This document shows positions 5,255-37,751 of a DNA stretch of 43,928 nt, one piece after another. Source of the stretch: Candidatus Poribacteria bacterium (GTDB lineage Bacteria; Poribacteria; WGA-4E; WGA-3G); NCBI GenBank assembly GCA_026710795.1, contig JAPOQK010000020.1:1-43928 (forward strand), given 5' to 3'. The notes beneath the pieces are model-generated. The model was not told the DNA's origin and did no database searches. It worked only from the letters and a program-made list of their open reading frames with translations. Both the position numbers and the translations under genes were made by a program. Position 1 is the first letter of the stretch. The number at the start of each line of letters is the position of its first letter.

Positions 5255-5317
5255 CTATTCATTTATTCACAAATTCTACTATAATTCTACGTAATGAACC
5301 CTTTTCGGAGACGACAG

Positions 5318-8131
5318 ATGAAAACGGATGATGTTGTTTTGATTCAATTCACACTTGCGGGTGATGAAGCTGCCTTTGCAAATTTGGTAAGTAAATACCA
5401 TGGACAGGTTCACGCATACACGTATCGGAAAGTTGGAGATTTCCACATTGCTGAAGACATTACACAAGAAACATTTTTCGAAGTGTATCAGAATCTGGGT
5501 AAGCTGCGAGACCCGACGAAGTTTTCAACATGGCTTTTTGCGATTGCGAATTATCTCTGTATAGCGTGGTTCAGAAAAAAGCAACCCATGTCTGAATTGT
5601 TGCGTGAGAGCTATACAATAAATACAGAGACAGATTCATATTCACGGTATGTGGCATTAGAAAATGAGAGGGATGCTGCTGAAGCACAACGCGAATTAGT
5701 CCAAACACTAATTTCTAAACTAAAGGAAAGCGATCAACAGTTAATCACACTCCACTATTTTGAAGAGATGACATCCACTGAGATCAGTAACTATTTAGGT
5801 GTTCCCCAAAATACGATTAAGAGTCGACTACGACGCGCAAAACAAAGGTTAAAACAATACGATTTATCAATTCAAGATACAGTAGATAGTTCTATTGAAA
5901 AGATATACAGTTACCAACATTCCTTACAAGGAGAAATGAGCATGGCAGATAGAATGAGTTCGGATATACTCAAAATTAAGTCGTTATCGGATCGTTCACG
6001 AATGCAACTTTCCTCAGATGGAGAGTGGCTTGCTTATGTAGTAGTAGACCCTGAGCGAAAATCATCATTCGAACAACAGACCCCTGAATTTTCACTGCAT
6101 CAACTAACGGGTGCCTTGATAGAAAATCACAGTCAGGAGGTATGGGTTACCAACATAAAAACGAATGAAACACATAAACTCGGAACAGATATGGGAGTTG
6201 ACTGGGCACCACGGTGGTCTCCAGATGGAAACTACTTAGCGTTCTTTTCTGACCGAATGGGGACACCCCAGCTTTGGCTTTGGGATAAGATTGAAAATGA
6301 ACTCCGACAAGTGAACAAAAAACCGATTACAGCAACACATGGTCTTGAAGTGCCACAGTGGACTTCAGATGGAAAACATATCATAACAAAGTTACGTCCC
6401 GAAGATATGGACCTTTCCACAATTATCTCACACAAGACGATGCCACAAGCGATAAACGTCTGGCATACGGATACGGATGAAGAGTCTACTATAGATGAAG
6501 ATTTAGACCAATTCGTGTGGATGAAAGGGGATTTAGGTGTTTTCAACGTTGACACAGGTGATGTGCAAGTTCTCGCGCGGGGTTTGTTTACGAGAAAAAT
6601 CATTCTCTCACCGGATGATACCACAGTTGCTGTGCTCAATGTAATACGTGAAGAGCGGTTGACAACTCAAGAAACCCTATATGAGTTGTTATTAGTTCCT
6701 TTAGATGGGTCGGCAGTCCGATGTTTAGCGACAAATATCAGCGAAAGAACGCTATTCGTTAGTTGGTCACCAGACGGTAAATATCTGGTATATCCGCAAC
6801 AAGATGGTCTGTTTATTGTTTCAGTCCAAGACGGTGAACAGGAGAACCTGACCGCAAACCTCACAGAGAAACTACGATTTTATGCACGTCCATTATGGCG
6901 ACCATCAGGAGAATCGTTTTTCTGCGGTATTGATGGAAATATATGGGAATTTGCAGCAGACGGCACTGATGCTCGGAAACTGACAGAAGAATTGAAGAAA
7001 CACATCATGGGTATTGTCGCGAAAGAGAATACAAATGTTGTCTGGCAGTCAAGCGATGTGCAGTCTATCTGTGTCCAGACTCATGATCCAGAAACAAAGA
7101 AAGATGGCTTCTATTTGATAAATACTACAGAAGCACGTGCTACTTGCTTATTTGAAGAACCAATTAGCATAACCCGTCAAATAGCAGACGAACAAGATTT
7201 AAAGGTTGTCAGTAACGACACACAGATTGTCTACAGAGCGCAAAATGCAACACACCCAGAGGAGGTCTGGATGTGTAATACAAACTCTGGAGAACGTCAG
7301 CAGGTGTCCGATCTCAATCCGCATCTGCGCGACTTACAATTTGGTGAGGTCCGTTTCGTCGAATCAGAAACAGAGAAAGGCAAACGTTTACAGGGTGTTT
7401 TGATGCTACCCACCAATTATGAGGAAGGCAAACAGTATCCTTTAGTTACGTGGATTTATCCGGGCAGACACTTATCAATGTATATTTATAGTTTTGGGTT
7501 AGATAAATTTGTCATGAACTTCCAACTCCTTGCTGCACGCGGTTTTGCCGTACTTGGTGTTTATATGCCGTCAAGGTCCAGCGAATCGTTGAAAGAATTG
7601 CCCGAATACGTTATGCCTGTGGTAGACAAGGTCATTGAAATGGGTATCGCCGATGCAGATCGTTTGGGGATAACGGGATACGGTTACGGTGGATACTTCA
7701 CTGCCGAACTGATTACACAAACCAACCGTTTCAAAGCCGCAGTTTGTGGTGGCGGTTTTTATAATTTGACGAGAATCTACGGAGATCTTACGAAACAGGG
7801 AAGAAGTCTTGGTATTAAATGGATAGAAGGCAAGAATCGTATGGATATAGGTGGTTCGCTTTGGGAAAAACGCGAACAGTATATTGACAGTTCACCGCTA
7901 TTTCACTTAGATAAGGTTACAACCCCGGTTCTGATCTATTGTGGTGAAGGATATAATGGCGATGATTACACGCGATCTGGCGAGCTTTTCTCTGGATTAC
8001 GTAGACTTGAGAAGAAAGCGGCTTTTGCGTGGTATCGTGGTGAAGGACATCTCGTAAGGTATTGGCGACCTGAACACCGTGCTGATTGTTGGGAACGTAT
8101 CATTGATTGGTTTGGAAAACATTTATCATAA
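5318..8131 (+). CDS. ECF sigma-70 factor fused to a catalytically dead S9 prolyl-oligopeptidase-like protein
   Basis: Residues 1 to ~190 are an ECF sigma factor closely related to the one at 551: DITQETFFEVYQNL in region 2, EISNYLGVPQNTIKSRLRRA in region 4. A ~20-residue linker leads to a full S9-family architecture: a TolB/PD40-like propeller (about residues 220-650, with repeats such as APRWSPDGNYLAFFSD and VSWSPDGKYLVYP) and an alpha/beta-hydrolase domain. The nucleophile elbow reads GYGYGG where active members have GGSYGG, so the catalytic serine is glycine; the histidine motif (RGEGH) remains. No signal peptide is present, which fits a cytoplasmic sigma factor. ATG 5318 has GGAG 7 nt upstream and matches the start of the first sigma; ATG 5294 is the alternative. 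The dead hydrolase may serve as a ligand sensor. Confidence 0.85.
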   Translation: MKTDDVVLIQFTLAGDEAAFANLVSKYHGQVHAYTYRKVGDFHIAEDITQETFFEVYQNLGKLRDPTKFSTWLFAIANYLCIAWFRKKQPMSELLRESYTINTETDSYSRYVALENERDAAEAQRELVQTLISKLKESDQQLITLHYFEEMTSTEISNYLGVPQNTIKSRLRRAKQRLKQYDLSIQDTVDSSIEKIYSYQHSLQGEMSMADRMSSDILKIKSLSDRSRMQLSSDGEWLAYVVVDPERKSSFEQQTPEFSLHQLTGALIENHSQEVWVTNIKTNETHKLGTDMGVDWAPRWSPDGNYLAFFSDRMGTPQLWLWDKIENELRQVNKKPITATHGLEVPQWTSDGKHIITKLRPEDMDLSTIISHKTMPQAINVWHTDTDEESTIDEDLDQFVWMKGDLGVFNVDTGDVQVLARGLFTRKIILSPDDTTVAVLNVIREERLTTQETLYELLLVPLDGSAVRCLATNISERTLFVSWSPDGKYLVYPQQDGLFIVSVQDGEQENLTANLTEKLRFYARPLWRPSGESFFCGIDGNIWEFAADGTDARKLTEELKKHIMGIVAKENTNVVWQSSDVQSICVQTHDPETKKDGFYLINTTEARATCLFEEPISITRQIADEQDLKVVSNDTQIVYRAQNATHPEEVWMCNTNSGERQQVSDLNPHLRDLQFGEVRFVESETEKGKRLQGVLMLPTNYEEGKQYPLVTWIYPGRHLSMYIYSFGLDKFVMNFQLLAARGFAVLGVYMPSRSSESLKELPEYVMPVVDKVIEMGIADADRLGITGYGYGGYFTAELITQTNRFKAAVCGGGFYNLTRIYGDLTKQGRSLGIKWIEGKNRMDIGGSLWEKREQYIDSSPLFHLDKVTTPVLIYCGEGYNGDDYTRSGELFSGLRRLEKKAAFAWYRGEGHLVRYWRPEHRADCWERIIDWFGKHLS
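5928..5944 (+). promoter_or_regulatory. Internal Shine-Dalgarno and in-frame ATG at the sigma/S9 junction
   Basis: AAGGAG (5928-5933) lies 8 nt before ATG 5942-5944, which is in frame and starts MADRMSSDIL, a natural S9-protein N-terminus. Initiation here would give a free ~730-residue S9-like protein of normal family length. A second ATG at 5936 is too close to the Shine-Dalgarno sequence. Confidence 0.5.
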
Positions 8132-8389
8132 TGCTGTCAACTTAAGGACATGTTGATTGTCTGAATCACTGAAGGCACTGAGAACGCAGAAAACACTGAA
8201 GGGGTGGTTAGTTTGTCAAGCCGGTTTTCATAAGATAAACGTTTGGATGGTATTGATTTAAATAACTCTGTAAACACCCTCTTTTTTCTTTACTTTTTTA
8301 AGTAAGTTGAATATACTCTAACGTATTAATACACGCGACCTGTTTGTTATTCAACAATGAGAATCAATATAGTCAATAGGAGGTCCACC

Positions 8390-10231
8390 GTGCAAAATAC
8401 AACTTCTGCTCTTGAAGAAACCAGTATCGGTTCCATCAACGTTGAACCGATACCACCAATTGAAATAGATGAAACTGAACTTGTATACCACCAACTTTGC
8501 CCCGCCGAGGATTTTGAGGAACTTGAAGGGAAACCTTTCCACGTCAACGGAACACATCTGGCGGTCTTCAGGAATAACGGCAGCTATTACGCAGTTGATA
8601 ATCGGTGTCCACACATGGGATACCCCATGTCAAAAGGAAGTATTCGCGACGGTGTCCTGATATGTCATTGGCATCACTGGGAATTTGACCTAAAATCAGG
8701 GGCATGCTTCTTAGCCTCAGGCGATGACCTAAAAGCCTTTCCTGTTGAAGCCAGAGATGACGGATATTTATACGTCGGGTTAGCAAAAGGTGAGAGGGAA
8801 GCAGCAAAACAACGTGTCATTGCAAACGGCAAACGTGCACTTGAACGTGGACTCAAAGACCGAAGCACATTCTTTATCGCAAAAGCCGTTACAGCACTCC
8901 GTGATGCAGGCGCACCTCCAGAGGTGATTATCCAACAAGGACTCCACTACGGCGCACATAAAAGTAGTGATGGATGGTCATCAGGTGTAGCAATCCTAAC
9001 ACTTGCAGCGAACCTATGGGATGATGTTGACCCAAATGACCACAACCTATTTCTCGTACACGGATTAAGCCAGATTAGTCGTAGAACCACAGGAAGTGCA
9101 CGTCCATATCGCGCACCTTTCCCACGTGTCAAAGATGATCACGACTTGGAAACACTCAAACGATGGTTCCGCTATTTCATTGATAAACGCCACAGAGGCG
9201 CAGCAGAACGAATCTTGCTAACGCTTAATGACAGAGACTATGATAAATCGATCATAGCAGACTTCGTCTACACGGCAGCAACAGATTATTACTTCACAGG
9301 AGACGGACACGCGCTTGATTTTGCTAACAAAATGTTTGAGGCGTTAGATTACGTGAAATGGGAAGGATCACACGAGATTTTGCGTCCAATCGTTGTTGAC
9401 CTCGTTAGTAGAACACGACATGAGGAAACTTCTCGATGGGCAGACTCCGTGCCTGTCTTAAGACCGATTTTCAAAAAACTTGATAGTATATGGGAGGACA
9501 ATCAAAAGAACAGTGCCGAATTGGATATATCCGCGTTTGCACAGACACTGCTTGGTGACGATTTTGAACCTACTGTCGTTGAGGTAGAGAAGCAACTACG
9601 CAATGGTGTTAATCCAACTGACATCTGTCGTGCTATGACTTATGCCTCTGCAATTCGCACTGCACGGTTCCATCTCAAAAACGAAGGAGACTGGCACGAT
9701 GTCGCGAACATATACTCATACGCTCACGCACTTTATCACGCTTTCCAATATGCACCAAGTGCGAACCTATTGCGCGGTATATTTCACGGTGTGGTCTATT
9801 TGGCATATCTGCGTTGGCTGAACATGCCTGCCGCACGAATTCCTAAACCCGGTCAGCGACTTGATGAAACTTACACATCTGTTGACAAAATGTTAGAACG
9901 ACTACAAGAATTTGCTGACTTCCAAAAAGTCTACGAAGCAGAAATTCTCGTCAATCAGTATCTGGAAGAAGGACATGATGTTGAACCACTAAAACGAACG
10001 CTTGCACACATCCTGCTCCGTGAAGATGCAGAACTCCACATGTTCCAAGTCCTTGAAGTCGCGTTTAGACATTACGACTTGTCAGAGGACACAGAAGAAA
10101 AGCGGATGCATCTATTGGCAGCGACCCGTTACATCACAGCACAGAAGCTGATGAAGAACATCTTGTGGTCAACCGAGAACGCGGAACGTCTTGCACGAGG
10201 TGAGTTGCTAAGCGAACGTGACGATGATTAA
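8390..10231 (+). CDS. Rieske [2Fe-2S] protein with large helical C-terminal domain
   Basis: The N-terminal ~125 residues are a Rieske domain. Its two cluster motifs are CPH (NRCPHMGYP) and CHWHH (LICHWHHWEFD), giving the two cysteine and two histidine ligands. The remaining ~480 residues are predicted mostly helical, with many histidines and aromatic residues, and I do not recognise them with confidence. A distant resemblance to questin-oxidase-like proteins is only an impression. GTG 8390 has AGGAGG 6 nt upstream and is preferred over ATG 8357, which has no such site. The next gene is a molybdopterin sulfite-oxidase-like enzyme, so an electron-transfer or oxygenase role in the same pathway is plausible. 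Confidence 0.75.
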   Translation: MQNTTSALEETSIGSINVEPIPPIEIDETELVYHQLCPAEDFEELEGKPFHVNGTHLAVFRNNGSYYAVDNRCPHMGYPMSKGSIRDGVLICHWHHWEFDLKSGACFLASGDDLKAFPVEARDDGYLYVGLAKGEREAAKQRVIANGKRALERGLKDRSTFFIAKAVTALRDAGAPPEVIIQQGLHYGAHKSSDGWSSGVAILTLAANLWDDVDPNDHNLFLVHGLSQISRRTTGSARPYRAPFPRVKDDHDLETLKRWFRYFIDKRHRGAAERILLTLNDRDYDKSIIADFVYTAATDYYFTGDGHALDFANKMFEALDYVKWEGSHEILRPIVVDLVSRTRHEETSRWADSVPVLRPIFKKLDSIWEDNQKNSAELDISAFAQTLLGDDFEPTVVEVEKQLRNGVNPTDICRAMTYASAIRTARFHLKNEGDWHDVANIYSYAHALYHAFQYAPSANLLRGIFHGVVYLAYLRWLNMPAARIPKPGQRLDETYTSVDKMLERLQEFADFQKVYEAEILVNQYLEEGHDVEPLKRTLAHILLREDAELHMFQVLEVAFRHYDLSEDTEEKRMHLLAATRYITAQKLMKNILWSTENAERLARGELLSERDDD

Positions 10232-31707: not shown

Positions 31708-34700
31708 ATGGATTCAAAAATAAAACGTTTTATTATCTCTATAGGAATATTGGCAGTCATCGGCGGAGCTTTTGCAGCTTGGATCAATATATTCCCAGAT
31801 TTATTATGGTTCAAGATGGTACAATATCCCGATATATTTACCAAAATCCTAATGACCAAAATTTATTTTGGTGTAATCGTAGGTGGTACATACCTAATAA
31901 TTCTTTTGGTAAATCTGTTTATTATGTACAAACTGACACCAGCCCACCTAAGTCCTGCTTTCCTTGAGGAAACAGATTTCTCAGGTACAGGTAAATCCCG
32001 ACAGTTGATTTACGGAGGACTGACGGTTATTGCAATCTTATTTAGTATTTTAATGGGATATACTGCAATAGACCGTTGGGAAGTCTTTTTACGGTATACA
32101 CACGCGGAAGATCTAAATTTCCAGTCTGCTACACCTATAGTGGTTGAGGATAATATAAATTCAAACGAAATCACTGTTTCAACTTTAGAACTTGAGGCAA
32201 AGAAGATCCAAGCTGGTGATCAAGTAAGTGTTCACGTTGAAGGTAATGACCCAATTGTCGCACAAGTAGAAGAGGTATTGACAAGGAGCCTTGAGCAAGA
32301 GGGGAAACCAAAGACAATACCAGTAGGTCTACGTTTAGATTCTGCGGTGCAGATAGAGAGTGGACAGAAAGCGTATTTCACATCACTGGCACGTGATCCA
32401 ATTTTTCATCGAGGTGTTTCTTATTACATTTTCAAAATGCCTTTGGAACGTTACGGCATCGGCACACTTTTTGGTATCTTTTTCTTAGTAACGATTTTCT
32501 CGATCATCATTTACTTTTTCCACGGTTTGATAACTGGTGATACAAACCAACTAAAGTTCCAACCACCAACCCGAGTAAAAGCGCATCTGTTCACCTTAGT
32601 TGCTCTGACACTGTTATTCCGTGCATGGAACTACCGTTTTGTTATGTTCGATCTGTTATATACATCAAACGATGTGGTGCGTGGTGGAGGAGGATATGCT
32701 GCAATAAACGCACGACTACCTATCCTATGGATTATGTTGGTAATAACCGTTTTGTGTGCAATTGTATTCATAATAGGTATTTTCCTACGCCGCAATACTC
32801 TTGTCTTCACAGGATTCATTATATTCATAATTGCCGGTTTTCTCGGACAGTTGTATCCAAGACTTGTTCAGACATATCGTGTTGAACCTAACAAACAGGT
32901 TTTAGAACAACAGTACATAAACTATAATATCAAAGGAACGCTAAATGCTTACGGTTTAGAAAACAATACGGTTACGGAAGAAGAGTATCCACTAACAGAG
33001 AAACTCTCCTATGCTGACATAACGAGTCCAGAAAACGAACCTGTTCTAAATAGTATCCGTCTTTGGGACTGGCGTCCCTTACGCAGAACATTCCGACAAC
33101 TCCAAGAATTACGGTCACAATATGACTTCTTTGATGTTGATATTGATAGATACAAGGTGAATGACGATATTCAGCAAGTGATGTTGTCCGCACGCGAACT
33201 AAACATTGAAGAACTCCCACCTGCCGTCAGAAATGATTGGTATAAGCAAACCTACACTTATACCCACGGATATGGGGCGGTTGTCAGTCCAGTAAACGAA
33301 ATTGTGAACGGTAATCCAAGTATGTTTATTCGAGGATTACCACCTATTGAGTACGAACCCGAATGGCCTCATAAGTTCAATGATGATCCAGGTCCACGCA
33401 TCTATTATGGGGAACGGACCAACAGGTATGTCATTGTCCATCCCACCCGTACAGAAACGAAGCTTGAGTTTGACTATCCACAAGAAGGTCAACAGTATGT
33501 TGATTATGCATATCAAGGTGATGGCGGTGTGCAACTTTCTTCATTTTGGCGCAAACTGGTCTACATGCTAAAGTTTAATAATGAAATCAAATTTGTTCTA
33601 CCAGGGGAAATAAAATCTACAAGTAAAGTGTTATATGAGCGGAATATCAAAAGACGGATTCACAAAATCGCTCCTTTTTTACGGTATGACGGTGATCCTT
33701 ATGCAGTTATTCATGATGGACGACTTGTCTGGATGATTGATGCGTATACTATCACTCATCGATATCCGTATTCCGTTTCAATGCAGGAATTCGTTCAACG
33801 AAGAAGACAACAAGGTCCTATGAACCAACGTGACGGTCAACCGTGGGGAAACTACATCCGAAATTCGGTTAAGGTAGTCGTGGATGCATATCATGGTTCA
33901 GTTGATTTTTATCTCATAGAACAGGTGCAAGATCCGATTGTAGAATGTTACCGTAAAATTTTCCCAAGTCTATTTAAGCCCTTTGATGAGATGCCTGCTG
34001 ATTTAAAAACACACATCCGTTATCCGACTACGATGTTCCTCATCCAATCCCGTGTCTATCAAGATTACCACATGAAAGATCCTATAACATTTTATGCTGG
34101 TGAAGACCAATGGCAAATTGGTACTGAACTATATGACAATACTGACGCACAAAGCAGACAAGCCGCTACGACGACACAACAAGTCAGTCCGCTTACACCG
34201 CAAAGTATAGTAGAGAAAAATTTACCGGGCAATGTCCAACCAGTTGAACCCTACTACGTCATCCTACGTTTACCGGGAGAAGAGAAACCTGAATTCATGT
34301 TGATGCTACCGTATACACCTCGGAACAAACCAAACCTTATCGCTTGGCTTTCTGCGAGATGTGATCTACCGCAGTATGGACAACTCCTCGTCTATCGCTT
34401 TCCTAAACAGGAATTAGTTTCCGGACCGATGCAGGTTGAAAACTTCATTAGTCAAAAACCAGAGATTTCTCAGCAAATCAGTCTATGGAATACACAAGGT
34501 ACACGTGTTCTACGCGGCAACCTACTAATTATGCCGATGAACAACGCGCTCCTATATGTTGAACCCATTTATATTCAGTCTGAAGATGAGGAAACAGCAA
34601 TCCCTGAACTACGACGCGTCGTTGTCAGTTATGAAGAAAATGATAACCTGCATGTCGTATGGGGTGAAAGTCTTGATGTAGCACTTAGAGAGATGTTCGT

Positions 34701-34929
34701 TAATACGTTGGGGACGCAAAGCGACATATCTACTACAGAAGATGGCACTTCAGAGGCAACTGAACAGCCAGAAGTTGCCACAACAATACGGGGATTAATT
34801 GAACAAGCAAGTAGTTATTACAATAACGCACAACAGGCTCAACGCAATGGTGATTGGACAGGATACGGACGCAATCTTCAACTTTTAGAGAATACATTGA
34901 AACAACTTGAAGAAAATATCCAAGAGTAA
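31708..34929 (+). CDS. UPF0182-family large membrane protein with inserted domain
   Basis: The N-terminal third contains about seven transmembrane helices, for example ILAVIGGAFAAWINIF and YLIILLVNLFIMY. A large extracytoplasmic domain follows with the family blocks FRQLQELRSQYDFFDVDIDR, SARELNIEELPP and TYTHGYGAVVSPVNEI, later FIRGLPPIEYEPEWP. The end is helical (LLENTLKQLEENIQ). The protein is long at 1073 residues, compared with about 900 usual. Part of the surplus is a ~75-90-residue segment (about 135-225) between the third helix and FTSLARDPIFHRGVSYYIF, a place where typical members have only a short loop. Function is unknown for the family. A CAAGGAG site precedes ATG 31708. Confidence 0.85.
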   Translation: MDSKIKRFIISIGILAVIGGAFAAWINIFPDLLWFKMVQYPDIFTKILMTKIYFGVIVGGTYLIILLVNLFIMYKLTPAHLSPAFLEETDFSGTGKSRQLIYGGLTVIAILFSILMGYTAIDRWEVFLRYTHAEDLNFQSATPIVVEDNINSNEITVSTLELEAKKIQAGDQVSVHVEGNDPIVAQVEEVLTRSLEQEGKPKTIPVGLRLDSAVQIESGQKAYFTSLARDPIFHRGVSYYIFKMPLERYGIGTLFGIFFLVTIFSIIIYFFHGLITGDTNQLKFQPPTRVKAHLFTLVALTLLFRAWNYRFVMFDLLYTSNDVVRGGGGYAAINARLPILWIMLVITVLCAIVFIIGIFLRRNTLVFTGFIIFIIAGFLGQLYPRLVQTYRVEPNKQVLEQQYINYNIKGTLNAYGLENNTVTEEEYPLTEKLSYADITSPENEPVLNSIRLWDWRPLRRTFRQLQELRSQYDFFDVDIDRYKVNDDIQQVMLSARELNIEELPPAVRNDWYKQTYTYTHGYGAVVSPVNEIVNGNPSMFIRGLPPIEYEPEWPHKFNDDPGPRIYYGERTNRYVIVHPTRTETKLEFDYPQEGQQYVDYAYQGDGGVQLSSFWRKLVYMLKFNNEIKFVLPGEIKSTSKVLYERNIKRRIHKIAPFLRYDGDPYAVIHDGRLVWMIDAYTITHRYPYSVSMQEFVQRRRQQGPMNQRDGQPWGNYIRNSVKVVVDAYHGSVDFYLIEQVQDPIVECYRKIFPSLFKPFDEMPADLKTHIRYPTTMFLIQSRVYQDYHMKDPITFYAGEDQWQIGTELYDNTDAQSRQAATTTQQVSPLTPQSIVEKNLPGNVQPVEPYYVILRLPGEEKPEFMLMLPYTPRNKPNLIAWLSARCDLPQYGQLLVYRFPKQELVSGPMQVENFISQKPEISQQISLWNTQGTRVLRGNLLIMPMNNALLYVEPIYIQSEDEETAIPELRRVVVSYEENDNLHVVWGESLDVALREMFVNTLGTQSDISTTEDGTSEATEQPEVATTIRGLIEQASSYYNNAQQAQRNGDWTGYGRNLQLLENTLKQLEENIQE

Positions 34930-34988
34930 TATAATCTATATAGAGAATACGTAGGTAGAAATCGATTAATACGAAGGAGGTGAAACAG

Positions 34989-35234
34989 ATGTCTCTTGAT
35001 TGGAAACCACGCCACAGAGATATGATTATTGGTGGTATTCCTTGGCTTGCCAGAATTTCTGATAAAGCGAATGCAAAACTACAAGGAATCATCGGGGAAT
35101 ACATATACCCGTGACCACAGGACAAAATGTTCCTGGAGGAACATAACATATCTGCTGACGATTTTGTTGAAATGGTACAGAACAATCCATCAGATGATGA
35201 GATGATTGCTGCCATAAAGAAATTGAACGGTTAA
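34989..35234 (+). CDS. DUF5069-family protein with in-frame TGA, candidate selenoprotein
   Basis: ATG 34989 has a near-perfect Shine-Dalgarno sequence (AAGGAGGTG) 8 nt upstream. The frame reads WKPRHRDMIIGGIPWLARIS, DKANAKLQGIIGEYIYP, then TGA at 35112-35114, then PQDKMFLEEHNISADDFVEM and VQNNPSDDEMIAAIKKLNG to TAA 35232-35234. The total is 81 residues with the TGA at codon 42. From memory, DUF5069 proteins have L-P-R-x-I-D-K-A-R-A before this point and Y-x-x-C-P-x-D-x-x-F/L after it, so the TGA replaces the conserved Cys. Both halves stay in the same frame with good family sequence. A perfect hairpin (35127-35144) has the placement of a bacterial SECIS. The alternative is a nonsense mutation in a decaying gene. 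No sel genes are in the window. Confidence 0.75.
35127..35144 (+). promoter_or_regulatory. Candidate bacterial SECIS hairpin
   Basis: ATGTTCC (35127-35133) and GGAACAT (35138-35144) form a perfect 7-bp stem with loop TGGA. The stem starts 12 nt and the loop 19 nt after the in-frame TGA. Published bacterial SECIS criteria as I recall them are a loop 16-37 nt after the UGA and a G among the first two loop bases; both hold here. Confidence 0.65.
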
Positions 35235-35460: not shown

Positions 35461-35486
35461 TATATCGTTCATTGGAGATAGTTTCC

Positions 35487-36614: not shown

Positions 36615-37751
36615 ATGGCAAACACATTGACCCAACAAATTCAGTCACGCGCCTACCAACTCGGATTTGAACTTGTCGGAATCACCCCTGCTGAAGAGAG
36701 TCAGACTATCCAACGTTACAAGGAATGGATTGCAAACGGGTATGCCGGTAAGATGGGTTACCTGGAAAGACACCTACCTCTCAAGGAAGATACCCGAACA
36801 CTCCTCCAAGAGGCAAAATCTGTTATTAGCCTCGCAATGAACTATTATACACTGGACCCTCCTAAAGAACTTGCTGAGGATCCATCACGCGGGCAGATAT
36901 CTCGGTATGCATGGGGTGATGACTACCATGATGTTATTCGAGAACGACTTTTATTGCTGGTGGAGTTCATAAAAAACACCGCTGAAACTGAACTTAAAAG
37001 TCGCGTCTTTGTAGATTCGGGACCGATTTTAGAAAGAGAATACGCCCAAAGAGCTAAACTTGGTTGGATTGGAAAAAACACCAATCTAATAAACTGGCGT
37101 ACGGGGTCATGGTACTTTCTCGCAGAAGTTCTTGTGAGTATTGAATTGGACTCTGAGATGGGAACCCTCCGTGGCAGTTGCGGCACCTGCACAAAGTGTA
37201 TTGAAGCATGTCCGACAGATGCGTTTGTTGAACCGAATTTGCTTGATTCAAGGCTATGTATTTCCTACTTAACGATAGAATTAAAGGACAGCATACCGAA
37301 GGAACTCCGTCCTAAGATGGGGAACCTAATCTTTGGGTGCGACATTTGCCAAGAAGTGTGTCCGTGGAATAGTAAAGCAATTCCTACGTCTGAACCTGCA
37401 TTTCAACCACACGAAGGAAACCTTGCCCCTGAGTTGCTAAAGCTTGTTGGTATGACACAAAGCGAGTTCAGTGAAAAGTTTAAAGGTAGTCCGATTAAAC
37501 GTGCAAAGCGGAGGGGTTTCTTACGTAATGTTCTCGTGGCTATTGGTAATTGGGGGGCACGTGCTGCCATTCCTGCTTTGAAGAAAGCCTTAGTTGACGA
37601 AGAACCTTTAGTTCGTAGTCATGCTGCGTGGGCAATGGGACAAATCGGTGGGAAAACTGCTGAACAAATCTTGCAAACGCAATTGGAGTGTGAGCATGAT
37701 AACGAAGTAATCTTGGAAATTCAGGATGCACTCCAAGTCATAAACTCATAG
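36615..37751 (+). CDS. queG: Epoxyqueuosine reductase with C-terminal HEAT repeats
   Basis: It has 378 residues. The N-terminal cobalamin-binding part has the segments VGITPAEES and GYAGKMGYLERHLPL and the conserved catalytic-type Asp in VFVDSGPILEREYAQ. Two [4Fe-4S] motifs follow: CGTCTKCIEACPTDAF and CDICQEVCPWNSK with a lone Cys between (RLCISYLTIE). The last ~65 residues form PBS/HEAT-type repeats (AAIPALKKALVDEEPLVRSH), as found in the longer QueG forms. The enzyme reduces epoxyqueuosine to queuosine in tRNA anticodons. Other queuosine genes are not in the window. Confidence 0.93.
   Translation: MANTLTQQIQSRAYQLGFELVGITPAEESQTIQRYKEWIANGYAGKMGYLERHLPLKEDTRTLLQEAKSVISLAMNYYTLDPPKELAEDPSRGQISRYAWGDDYHDVIRERLLLLVEFIKNTAETELKSRVFVDSGPILEREYAQRAKLGWIGKNTNLINWRTGSWYFLAEVLVSIELDSEMGTLRGSCGTCTKCIEACPTDAFVEPNLLDSRLCISYLTIELKDSIPKELRPKMGNLIFGCDICQEVCPWNSKAIPTSEPAFQPHEGNLAPELLKLVGMTQSEFSEKFKGSPIKRAKRRGFLRNVLVAIGNWGARAAIPALKKALVDEEPLVRSHAAWAMGQIGGKTAEQILQTQLECEHDNEVILEIQDALQVINS

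What the first reader, a model, noticed from the sequence alone, without database searches (positions are those of the whole stretch)
34989..35234. DUF5069 gene with in-frame TGA at the conserved cysteine and a SECIS-like hairpin: candidate selenoprotein
Codon 42 is TGA while the same frame continues with family-like sequence to TAA. From memory of DUF5069, the residue before the P-x-D motif is Cys. A perfect 7-bp stem with loop TGGA starts 12 nt after the TGA, as bacterial SECIS elements do, and the gene has a near-consensus Shine-Dalgarno sequence, so it is not an abandoned frame. Standard gene callers would report only 41 residues or nothing. I know of no described DUF5069 selenoprotein.
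Basis: partly seen in the sequence, partly recalled or inferred. Interest (0 to 1): 0.93.

Follow-up and report, generated by a model that had tools for sequence, protein, structure and literature searches.

The report
A new small selenoprotein family (DUF5069)
A small gene of unknown function in Candidatus Poribacteria and in a second bacterial phylum has an in-frame UGA "stop" codon exactly where its closest other relatives have cysteine, so it very likely makes a protein containing selenocysteine, which public gene catalogues cut short or misspell.

Summary
The gene at 34989-35234 has TGA at codon 42, then 39 sense codons and TAA. Read through, it matches DUF5069 (E 1e-13). The genome, whose nearest named relatives are Candidatus Poribacteria, has selA, selB beside tRNA-Sec, and a selD with its own TGA.

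Orthologues were read in 84 Poribacteria genomes and in 64 genomes of a second phylum (reached from a record titled Ca. Latescibacterota). The site was TGA in 108 genes, TGC/TGT in 13, nothing else. All 108 TGA genes carry loop TGGA at one register (one gene is a codon further on); 107 have a stem of at least 5 bp. Of 21 Cys genes 1 has that stem, without the TGGA loop. Stem pairs covary between the phyla. Hairpin codons TTC-CTG-GAG-GAA are invariant in 70 of 70 Poribacteria genes. Of 160 listed public proteins, 23 carry Trp at the site and 10 end just before it.

A 2026 inventory of 119 prokaryotic selenoprotein families does not list DUF5069; no paper in the searched library mentions it. I call it a new selenoprotein family of unknown role. 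Decoding itself is not shown by experiment.

The parts
34974..34983 (+). Shine-Dalgarno sequence AAGGAGGTGA
   Evidence: Sequence; GGAGG lies within 22 nt upstream of the start in 69 of the 71 Poribacteria TGA genes whose upstream DNA is held (L126 is cut at a contig end).
34989..35234 (+). Short DUF5069 gene, 81 residues when TGA is read through; predicted selenoprotein
   Evidence: orthologues.
35112..35114 (+). In-frame TGA (codon 42), predicted selenocysteine codon
   Evidence: TGA in 72 of 78 Poribacteria and 36 of 43 second-phylum orthologues, TGC/TGT in the other 13.
35127..35144 (+). Predicted bacterial SECIS hairpin: stem 35127-35133 with 35138-35144, loop TGGA 35134-35137
   Evidence: Loop TGGA in 108 of 108 TGA genes, stem of at least 5 bp in 107; covariation; synonymous randomisation.
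31708..34929 (+). Upstream neighbour, UPF0182 protein (PF03699)
   Evidence: found in 56 of the 80 loci, some of which are cut by contig ends.
35439..36551 (+). Downstream neighbour, chorismate mutase/prephenate dehydratase (pheA-like); the Pfam scan used the start at 35478
   Evidence: found in 57 of the 80 loci, including the 5 Poribacteria loci with Cys.
36615..37751 (+). Next gene, epoxyqueuosine reductase (queG-like)
   Evidence: found in 41 of the 80 loci.

Best explanation
The gene at 34989-35234 encodes a short DUF5069-family protein whose in-frame UGA at codon 42 is very likely read as selenocysteine, with SelB and Sec-tRNA(Sec) predicted to act through the conserved hairpin that starts 12 nt downstream of the UGA. 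Shown here: the conserved TGA/Cys alternation, the conserved and covarying hairpin tied to TGA, purifying selection on both sides of the TGA, and the Sec machinery in the genome. Inferred: the decoding itself, and the role. The Poribacteria form is an 81-residue protein, helical in its model, with one Sec and no Cys, so it could not form an internal selenenyl-sulphide bond. The role I think most likely is a single selenol acting as a redox centre or nucleophile that is recycled by an external thiol.
For: Site: TGA 72, TGC 5, TGT 1 in 78 Poribacteria orthologues; TGA 36, TGC 5, TGT 2 in 43 second-phylum orthologues. Machinery. selA is over its cut-off in 63 of 71 TGA Poribacteria genomes; 5 of the other 8 have selB over its cut-off. 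In the second phylum selA is over its cut-off in 35 of 36 TGA genomes, 6 of 7 Cys genomes and 4 of 21 genomes without the short gene. Hairpin: loop TGGA 108 of 108 and stem of at least 5 bp 107 of 108 in TGA genes, against 1 of 21 Cys genes. Synonymous randomisation reached at most 62 of 107 stems, and 33 of 107 with the loop, against 106 observed. Covariation: 44 cells with changes on both sides against 15.0 in shuffles; one pair is G-C in 45 rows and C-G in 13. Codons 48-51 invariant in 70 of 70. pN/pS 0.125 before and 0.192 after the TGA. The window hairpin meets the bacterial SECIS rules quoted in PMC13188914.
Against: No protein or selenium data. SECIS-like hairpins are common by chance (65 of 500 random TGAs). 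Two covariation measures, the number of pairs with double changes and the number of pair types, do not exceed shuffles, and the outermost stem pair is unpaired in 29 of 58 rows. Three TGA Poribacteria genomes (G029, G032, G059; 73-83% complete) show neither selA nor selB over the cut-offs, most simply by incompleteness. Second-phylum gene L244 has a mismatch at the top of the stem. The genome's own selD hairpin did not pass my SECIS rules, so they are imperfect. Most Cys genomes keep selA, so Cys does not simply follow loss of the machinery. The role rests on chemistry and homology only.
Confidence: 0.96

Rival explanations
1. The UGA is read as tryptophan, or is suppressed generally, because these bacteria use another genetic code.
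For: Public gene calls give Trp at the site in 23 of 160 listed proteins.
Against: Relatives have Cys, not Trp: 125 of 160 listed proteins and all 13 non-TGA orthologues. The genome has tRNA-Sec, SelA, SelB and SelD. A conserved hairpin follows the TGA. Two of 30 window ORFs that I picked end in TGA. All 23 Trp entries lie on contigs of at most 1,237 bases, where a gene caller may have chosen code 4 (inference).
Confidence: 0.01
2. TGA is a true stop: a 41-residue protein is made, and the rest is a relic or a second gene that starts inside.
For: Ten of 160 listed public entries end exactly there. Codon 47 is ATG in 38 of 70 genes.
Against: pN/pS after the TGA is 0.192, not far above 0.125 before it. 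Codon 47 is not ATG in the other 32 of 70. The DUF5069 match spans the TGA (residues 7-78), and the read-through match spans it in the relatives too.
Confidence: 0.01
3. UGA is read through, but by hairpin-stimulated misreading by a near-cognate tRNA, without selenium.
For: Stem-loops can stimulate read-through (established knowledge, not tested here).
Against: The aligned residue in non-TGA orthologues is Cys. Loop and stem go with TGA and are absent from 20 of 21 Cys genes. selA is over its cut-off in 35 of 36 second-phylum TGA genomes and in 4 of 21 that lack the gene.
Confidence: 0.02

Closest known systems
DUF5069 (Pfam PF16798), Cys forms in Ca. Poribacteria, Latescibacterota, Chloroflexota and Bacillota records
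   Same: Same short protein; Cys sits where the window gene has TGA; the 5 Poribacteria Cys loci also stand before the pheA-like gene.
   Different: Cys instead of predicted Sec; no TGGA hairpin.
PDB 3omd, protein of unknown function from Leptospirillum rubarum
   Different: 145 residues, so longer; Cys, not Sec; no function given in the entry title.
Prokaryotic selenoproteins inventoried in PMC13188914 Table 1 (119 families/subfamilies), e.g. SelD, KCU-star (DUF466), DUF523, DUF1858
   Same: UGA at a conserved Cys, bacterial SECIS, Sec machinery.
   Different: DUF5069/PF16798 is not in the table. The Poribacteria protein has no second Cys and so no UxxC or CxxU motif; the review says most characterised selenoproteins have a thioredoxin-like fold, while this model is helical and matches only 3omd clearly.
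selD of the same genome (C43)
   Same: Also carries one in-frame TGA in its conserved frame.
   Different: A long-known selenoprotein family.

Membership tests
Selenoprotein | In-frame UGA aligned with a conserved Cys in homologues | tested here: met
   TGA 108, Cys codons 13, others 0 in 121 orthologues. The 14 loci outside Poribacteria also have Cys, but one of that scan's two patterns demands Cys.
Selenoprotein | selA, selB, selD and tRNA-Sec in the genome | tested here: met
Selenoprotein | Selenium in the protein | not testable with these tools
   Needs 75Se labelling or mass spectrometry.
Bacterial SECIS element | Apical loop 3-9 nt, upper stem 4-16 bp, G in the first two loop positions, 16-37 nt from UGA to loop, MFE at most -7.5 (rules quoted in PMC13188914) | tested here: met
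   Window gene: loop TGGA (4 nt), 7-bp stem, 19 nt, -14.5 kcal/mol in the best segment. Caution: 65 of 500 random TGAs also pass.
Bacterial SECIS element | Conservation at RNA level beyond the protein | tested here: met
   two of five covariation measures do not exceed shuffles.
Bacterial SECIS element | Binding by SelB | not testable with these tools
   Needs binding or reporter assays.
DUF5069 (PF16798) | Match above Pfam's gathering score | tested here: met
   52 bits against 27, profile 4-75 of 133: only the first part of the profile is present.
Any NCBIfam selenoprotein model | Match to a curated model | tested here: not met
   P0001: no family at E up to 1; 28 rows of A2: only two families, one row each, best E 0.075, neither a selenoprotein.

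The most novel reading that the evidence does not exclude
DUF5069-Sec is a selenoprotein family with a non-thioredoxin, helical fold and no resolving cysteine, already present in a common ancestor of Ca. Poribacteria and the Latescibacterota-type phylum. It is a near-universal selenoprotein of Poribacteria that helps to keep the Sec machinery in these lineages, and it works through one selenol by chemistry not seen in the thioredoxin-like selenoproteins.
Probability: 0.4. Interest if true: 0.82.

Novelty: new member of a known kind. Interest (0 to 1): 0.7.

Why it matters
It adds a predicted selenoprotein family carried by 71 of 84 Poribacteria genomes and 36 of 64 genomes of a second phylum. 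Public gene calls truncate it or write Trp, and no NCBIfam model names it. It gives selA/selB in these bacteria a widespread predicted client gene. It also offers a natural Sec/Cys comparison in a small helical protein outside the thioredoxin fold. DUF5069 has no assigned function, so the Sec site points to the likely active residue of the short family.

Tried and rejected
Hairpin as sole evidence: rejected, since 65 of 500 random window TGAs pass the same rules.

A purely Poribacterial origin of Sec: my first tree (75 rows, 56 Sec) showed Sec as one side of a branch (support 83/87) inside Poribacteria. The scan could hardly find TGA genes outside that phylum, because its two patterns need DWKPR or YPC. 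The search found the TGA form in a second phylum, so I dropped that reading. The second tree (72 rows, 51 Sec; bootstrap not settled, midpoint root) needs 3 changes of state and cannot tell one gain with two losses from several gains.

Function from neighbours: UPF0182, pheA-like and queG-like genes stand beside it in many Poribacteria; a tblastn search with five window neighbours found nothing in the 43 second-phylum loci, which hold about 2 kb on each side at most. No function follows.

A Sec-linked sequence difference (His9 in the Poribacteria Sec rows, Gly9 in the 6 Poribacteria Cys rows of A2) was dropped, because second-phylum Sec genes have Ala, Ser or Gly there.

Paralogue count: one search counted overlapping loci twice (70 hits); one search recounts 62 distinct stretches.

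Chloroflexota and Bacillota were not searched for TGA forms with the read-through search.

Full report
What is there. The window gene at 34989-35234 starts with ATG behind AAGGAGGTGA, has TGA at codon 42 (35112-35114) and ends at TAA after 39 more sense codons. Read through, the 81-residue product matches DUF5069 (PF16798) at E 1e-13 over residues 7-78, which covers positions 4-75 of the 133-position profile. A 7-bp stem with loop TGGA begins 12 nt after the TGA.

Genome. The window lies in a 4.7-Mb, 114-contig assembly. It has selA (611.9 bits), selB (360.9 bits) 60 nt from a tRNA-Sec gene with anticodon tca (73.9 bits), and selD (354.4 bits) with one in-frame TGA of its own. The closest named records (the first 65 rows) are all titled Candidatus or uncultured Poribacteria.

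The site in relatives. A read-through search of the 84 genomes of the phylum gave 78 short DUF5069 genes: 72 with TGA (71 genomes; G057 has two) and 6 with Cys (5 TGC, 1 TGT), all six in family f7. Seven genomes gave no short gene. In the named collection 113 stretches were found and the best 80 kept: 61 have TGA, all Poribacteria, and 19 have Cys, of which 5 are Poribacteria and 14 lie outside it. Of 64 genomes, 47 had a DUF5069 match and 43 the short form: 36 with TGA, 5 with TGC and 2 with TGT. In all 121 genes of the two phyla the site is therefore TGA (108) or a Cys codon (13).

Hairpin. Of 108 TGA genes, 107 have TGGA at the same place after the TGA, and L122 has it one codon further on; 107 have a stem of at least 5 bp, the exception being L244. 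Of 21 Cys genes (6 Poribacteria, 7 second phylum, 8 other), one has such a stem: L213, with loop TACA, in genome G084, which has no selA over the cut-off. It may be a relic of a lost Sec site. In 70 distinct Poribacteria TGA genes (L122, which has an extra codon, and L126, cut at a contig end, left out), codons 48-51 are TTC CTG GAG GAA without exception, although Leu has six codons and Phe and Glu two each. Elsewhere the invariant codons besides the TGA are 4-5 (GAT TGG), 19 (TGG) and 72 (ATG). Redrawing synonymous codons 1,000 times from these genes' own usage gave at most 62 of 107 stems and at most 33 of 107 stems with TGGA, against 106 observed (L122 left out). On 58 sequences (26 Poribacteria representatives, 32 distinct second-phylum ones), three pairs change on both sides in 44 cells (15.0 in shuffles, 0 of 500 as high), and the covariation score is 0.281 against 0.081; the third pair is G-C in 45 rows and C-G in 13. 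The number of such pairs and of pair types does not exceed shuffles, and the outermost pair is open in 29 of 58 rows. Within Poribacteria alone the signal is small but present (8 cells against 3.1 on 65 sequences). L122 keeps the stem with A-U for G-C. The element meets the bacterial SECIS rules printed in PMC13188914. These rules are loose: 65 of 500 random TGAs in the window pass, and the genome's selD hairpin does not pass in my implementation. The comparative evidence, not the single hairpin, carries the claim.

Selection and context. pN/pS is 0.125 for codons 1-41 and 0.192 for codons 43-80, so the part behind the TGA is maintained. In the 80 named loci, the UPF0182 gene was found in 56, the pheA-like gene in 57 and the queG-like gene in 41; some loci are cut by contig ends. 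The 5 Poribacteria Cys loci in that set also stand before the pheA-like gene, so Sec and Cys forms are orthologues in place.

Machinery across genomes. In Poribacteria selA is over its cut-off in 71 of 84 genomes: 63 of the 71 TGA genomes, 5 of the 6 Cys genomes and 3 of the 7 without the gene. Of the 8 TGA genomes without it, 5 have selB over the cut-off; the other three are 73-83% complete. In the second phylum selA is over its cut-off in 35 of 36 TGA genomes, 6 of 7 Cys genomes and 4 of 21 genomes without the short gene. So Cys in this gene does not require loss of the machinery.

Public databases. Three protein searches listed 160 different proteins (18; the best 120 of 1095; 70; with overlap). 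At the site 125 have Cys, 23 Trp, 10 end exactly before it, and 2 look frame-shifted. The 23 Trp entries are all on contigs of at most 1,237 bases. P0101 has Cys and is 91% identical to the Sec gene of L224. Records that carry U cannot be seen by that search.

Evolution. The tree of 72 rows places Poribacteria and second-phylum genes together against 8 Cys genes, mostly of Chloroflexota and Bacillota, and needs 3 changes of the Sec/Cys state. One gain with two losses fits, and the near-identical hairpin speaks for one origin (inference), but 88 columns, a midpoint root and a bootstrap that had not settled cannot decide.

Literature. Searches of the held PMC library for DUF5069 and for DUF5069 with selenoprotein gave no paper; Poribacteria with selenoprotein gave none, with selenocysteine two and with selenium seven (listing only); Latescibacteria with selenoprotein gave two. 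I read passages of PMC13188914 and parts 1 and 2 of 3 of its section 7, with the whole Table 1: 119 families/subfamilies, no DUF5069. Passages of PMC12013277, PMC9312934 and PMC5029168 show none either. PMC5649159 (passage) reports SelA and SelB together in the majority of sponge symbiont bins and names no client protein there. PMC8318568 (passages) names DUF166, not DUF5069. PMC9999580 was seen in the listing only. Subscription papers and preprints are largely or wholly outside the library.

Verdict. Selenocysteine at codon 42: 0.96. A new family of a known kind of protein, with an unknown role.

Noticed in passing
9967-10055, minus strand: ARAGORN calls a tRNA-SeC inside the Rieske-domain ORF 8357-10231; Rfam finds nothing at gathering score in the window, so it is probably false.
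   Followed up: partly
L213 (genome G084): A Cys gene that still has a 7-bp stem at the SECIS position, but with loop TACA, in a genome without selA over the cut-off: a possible relic of a lost Sec site.
   Followed up: partly
L122 (genome G016): An extra codon between TGA and hairpin, with the stem kept by a G-C to A-U double change.
   Followed up: yes
G000:C14:27753-29000: Three DUF5069 domains in one 428-residue frame; frames of about 430 residues with DUF5069 matches are common in the phylum, and most paralogue stretches read have Ser at the Sec column.
   Followed up: partly
G000:C43:17522-18448: selD of this genome carries one in-frame TGA, as in the known Sec form of SelD.
   Followed up: partly
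524-1804 and 5294-8131: Both proteins begin with what by eye looks like an ECF-sigma-like part fused to other domains; not scanned.
   Followed up: no
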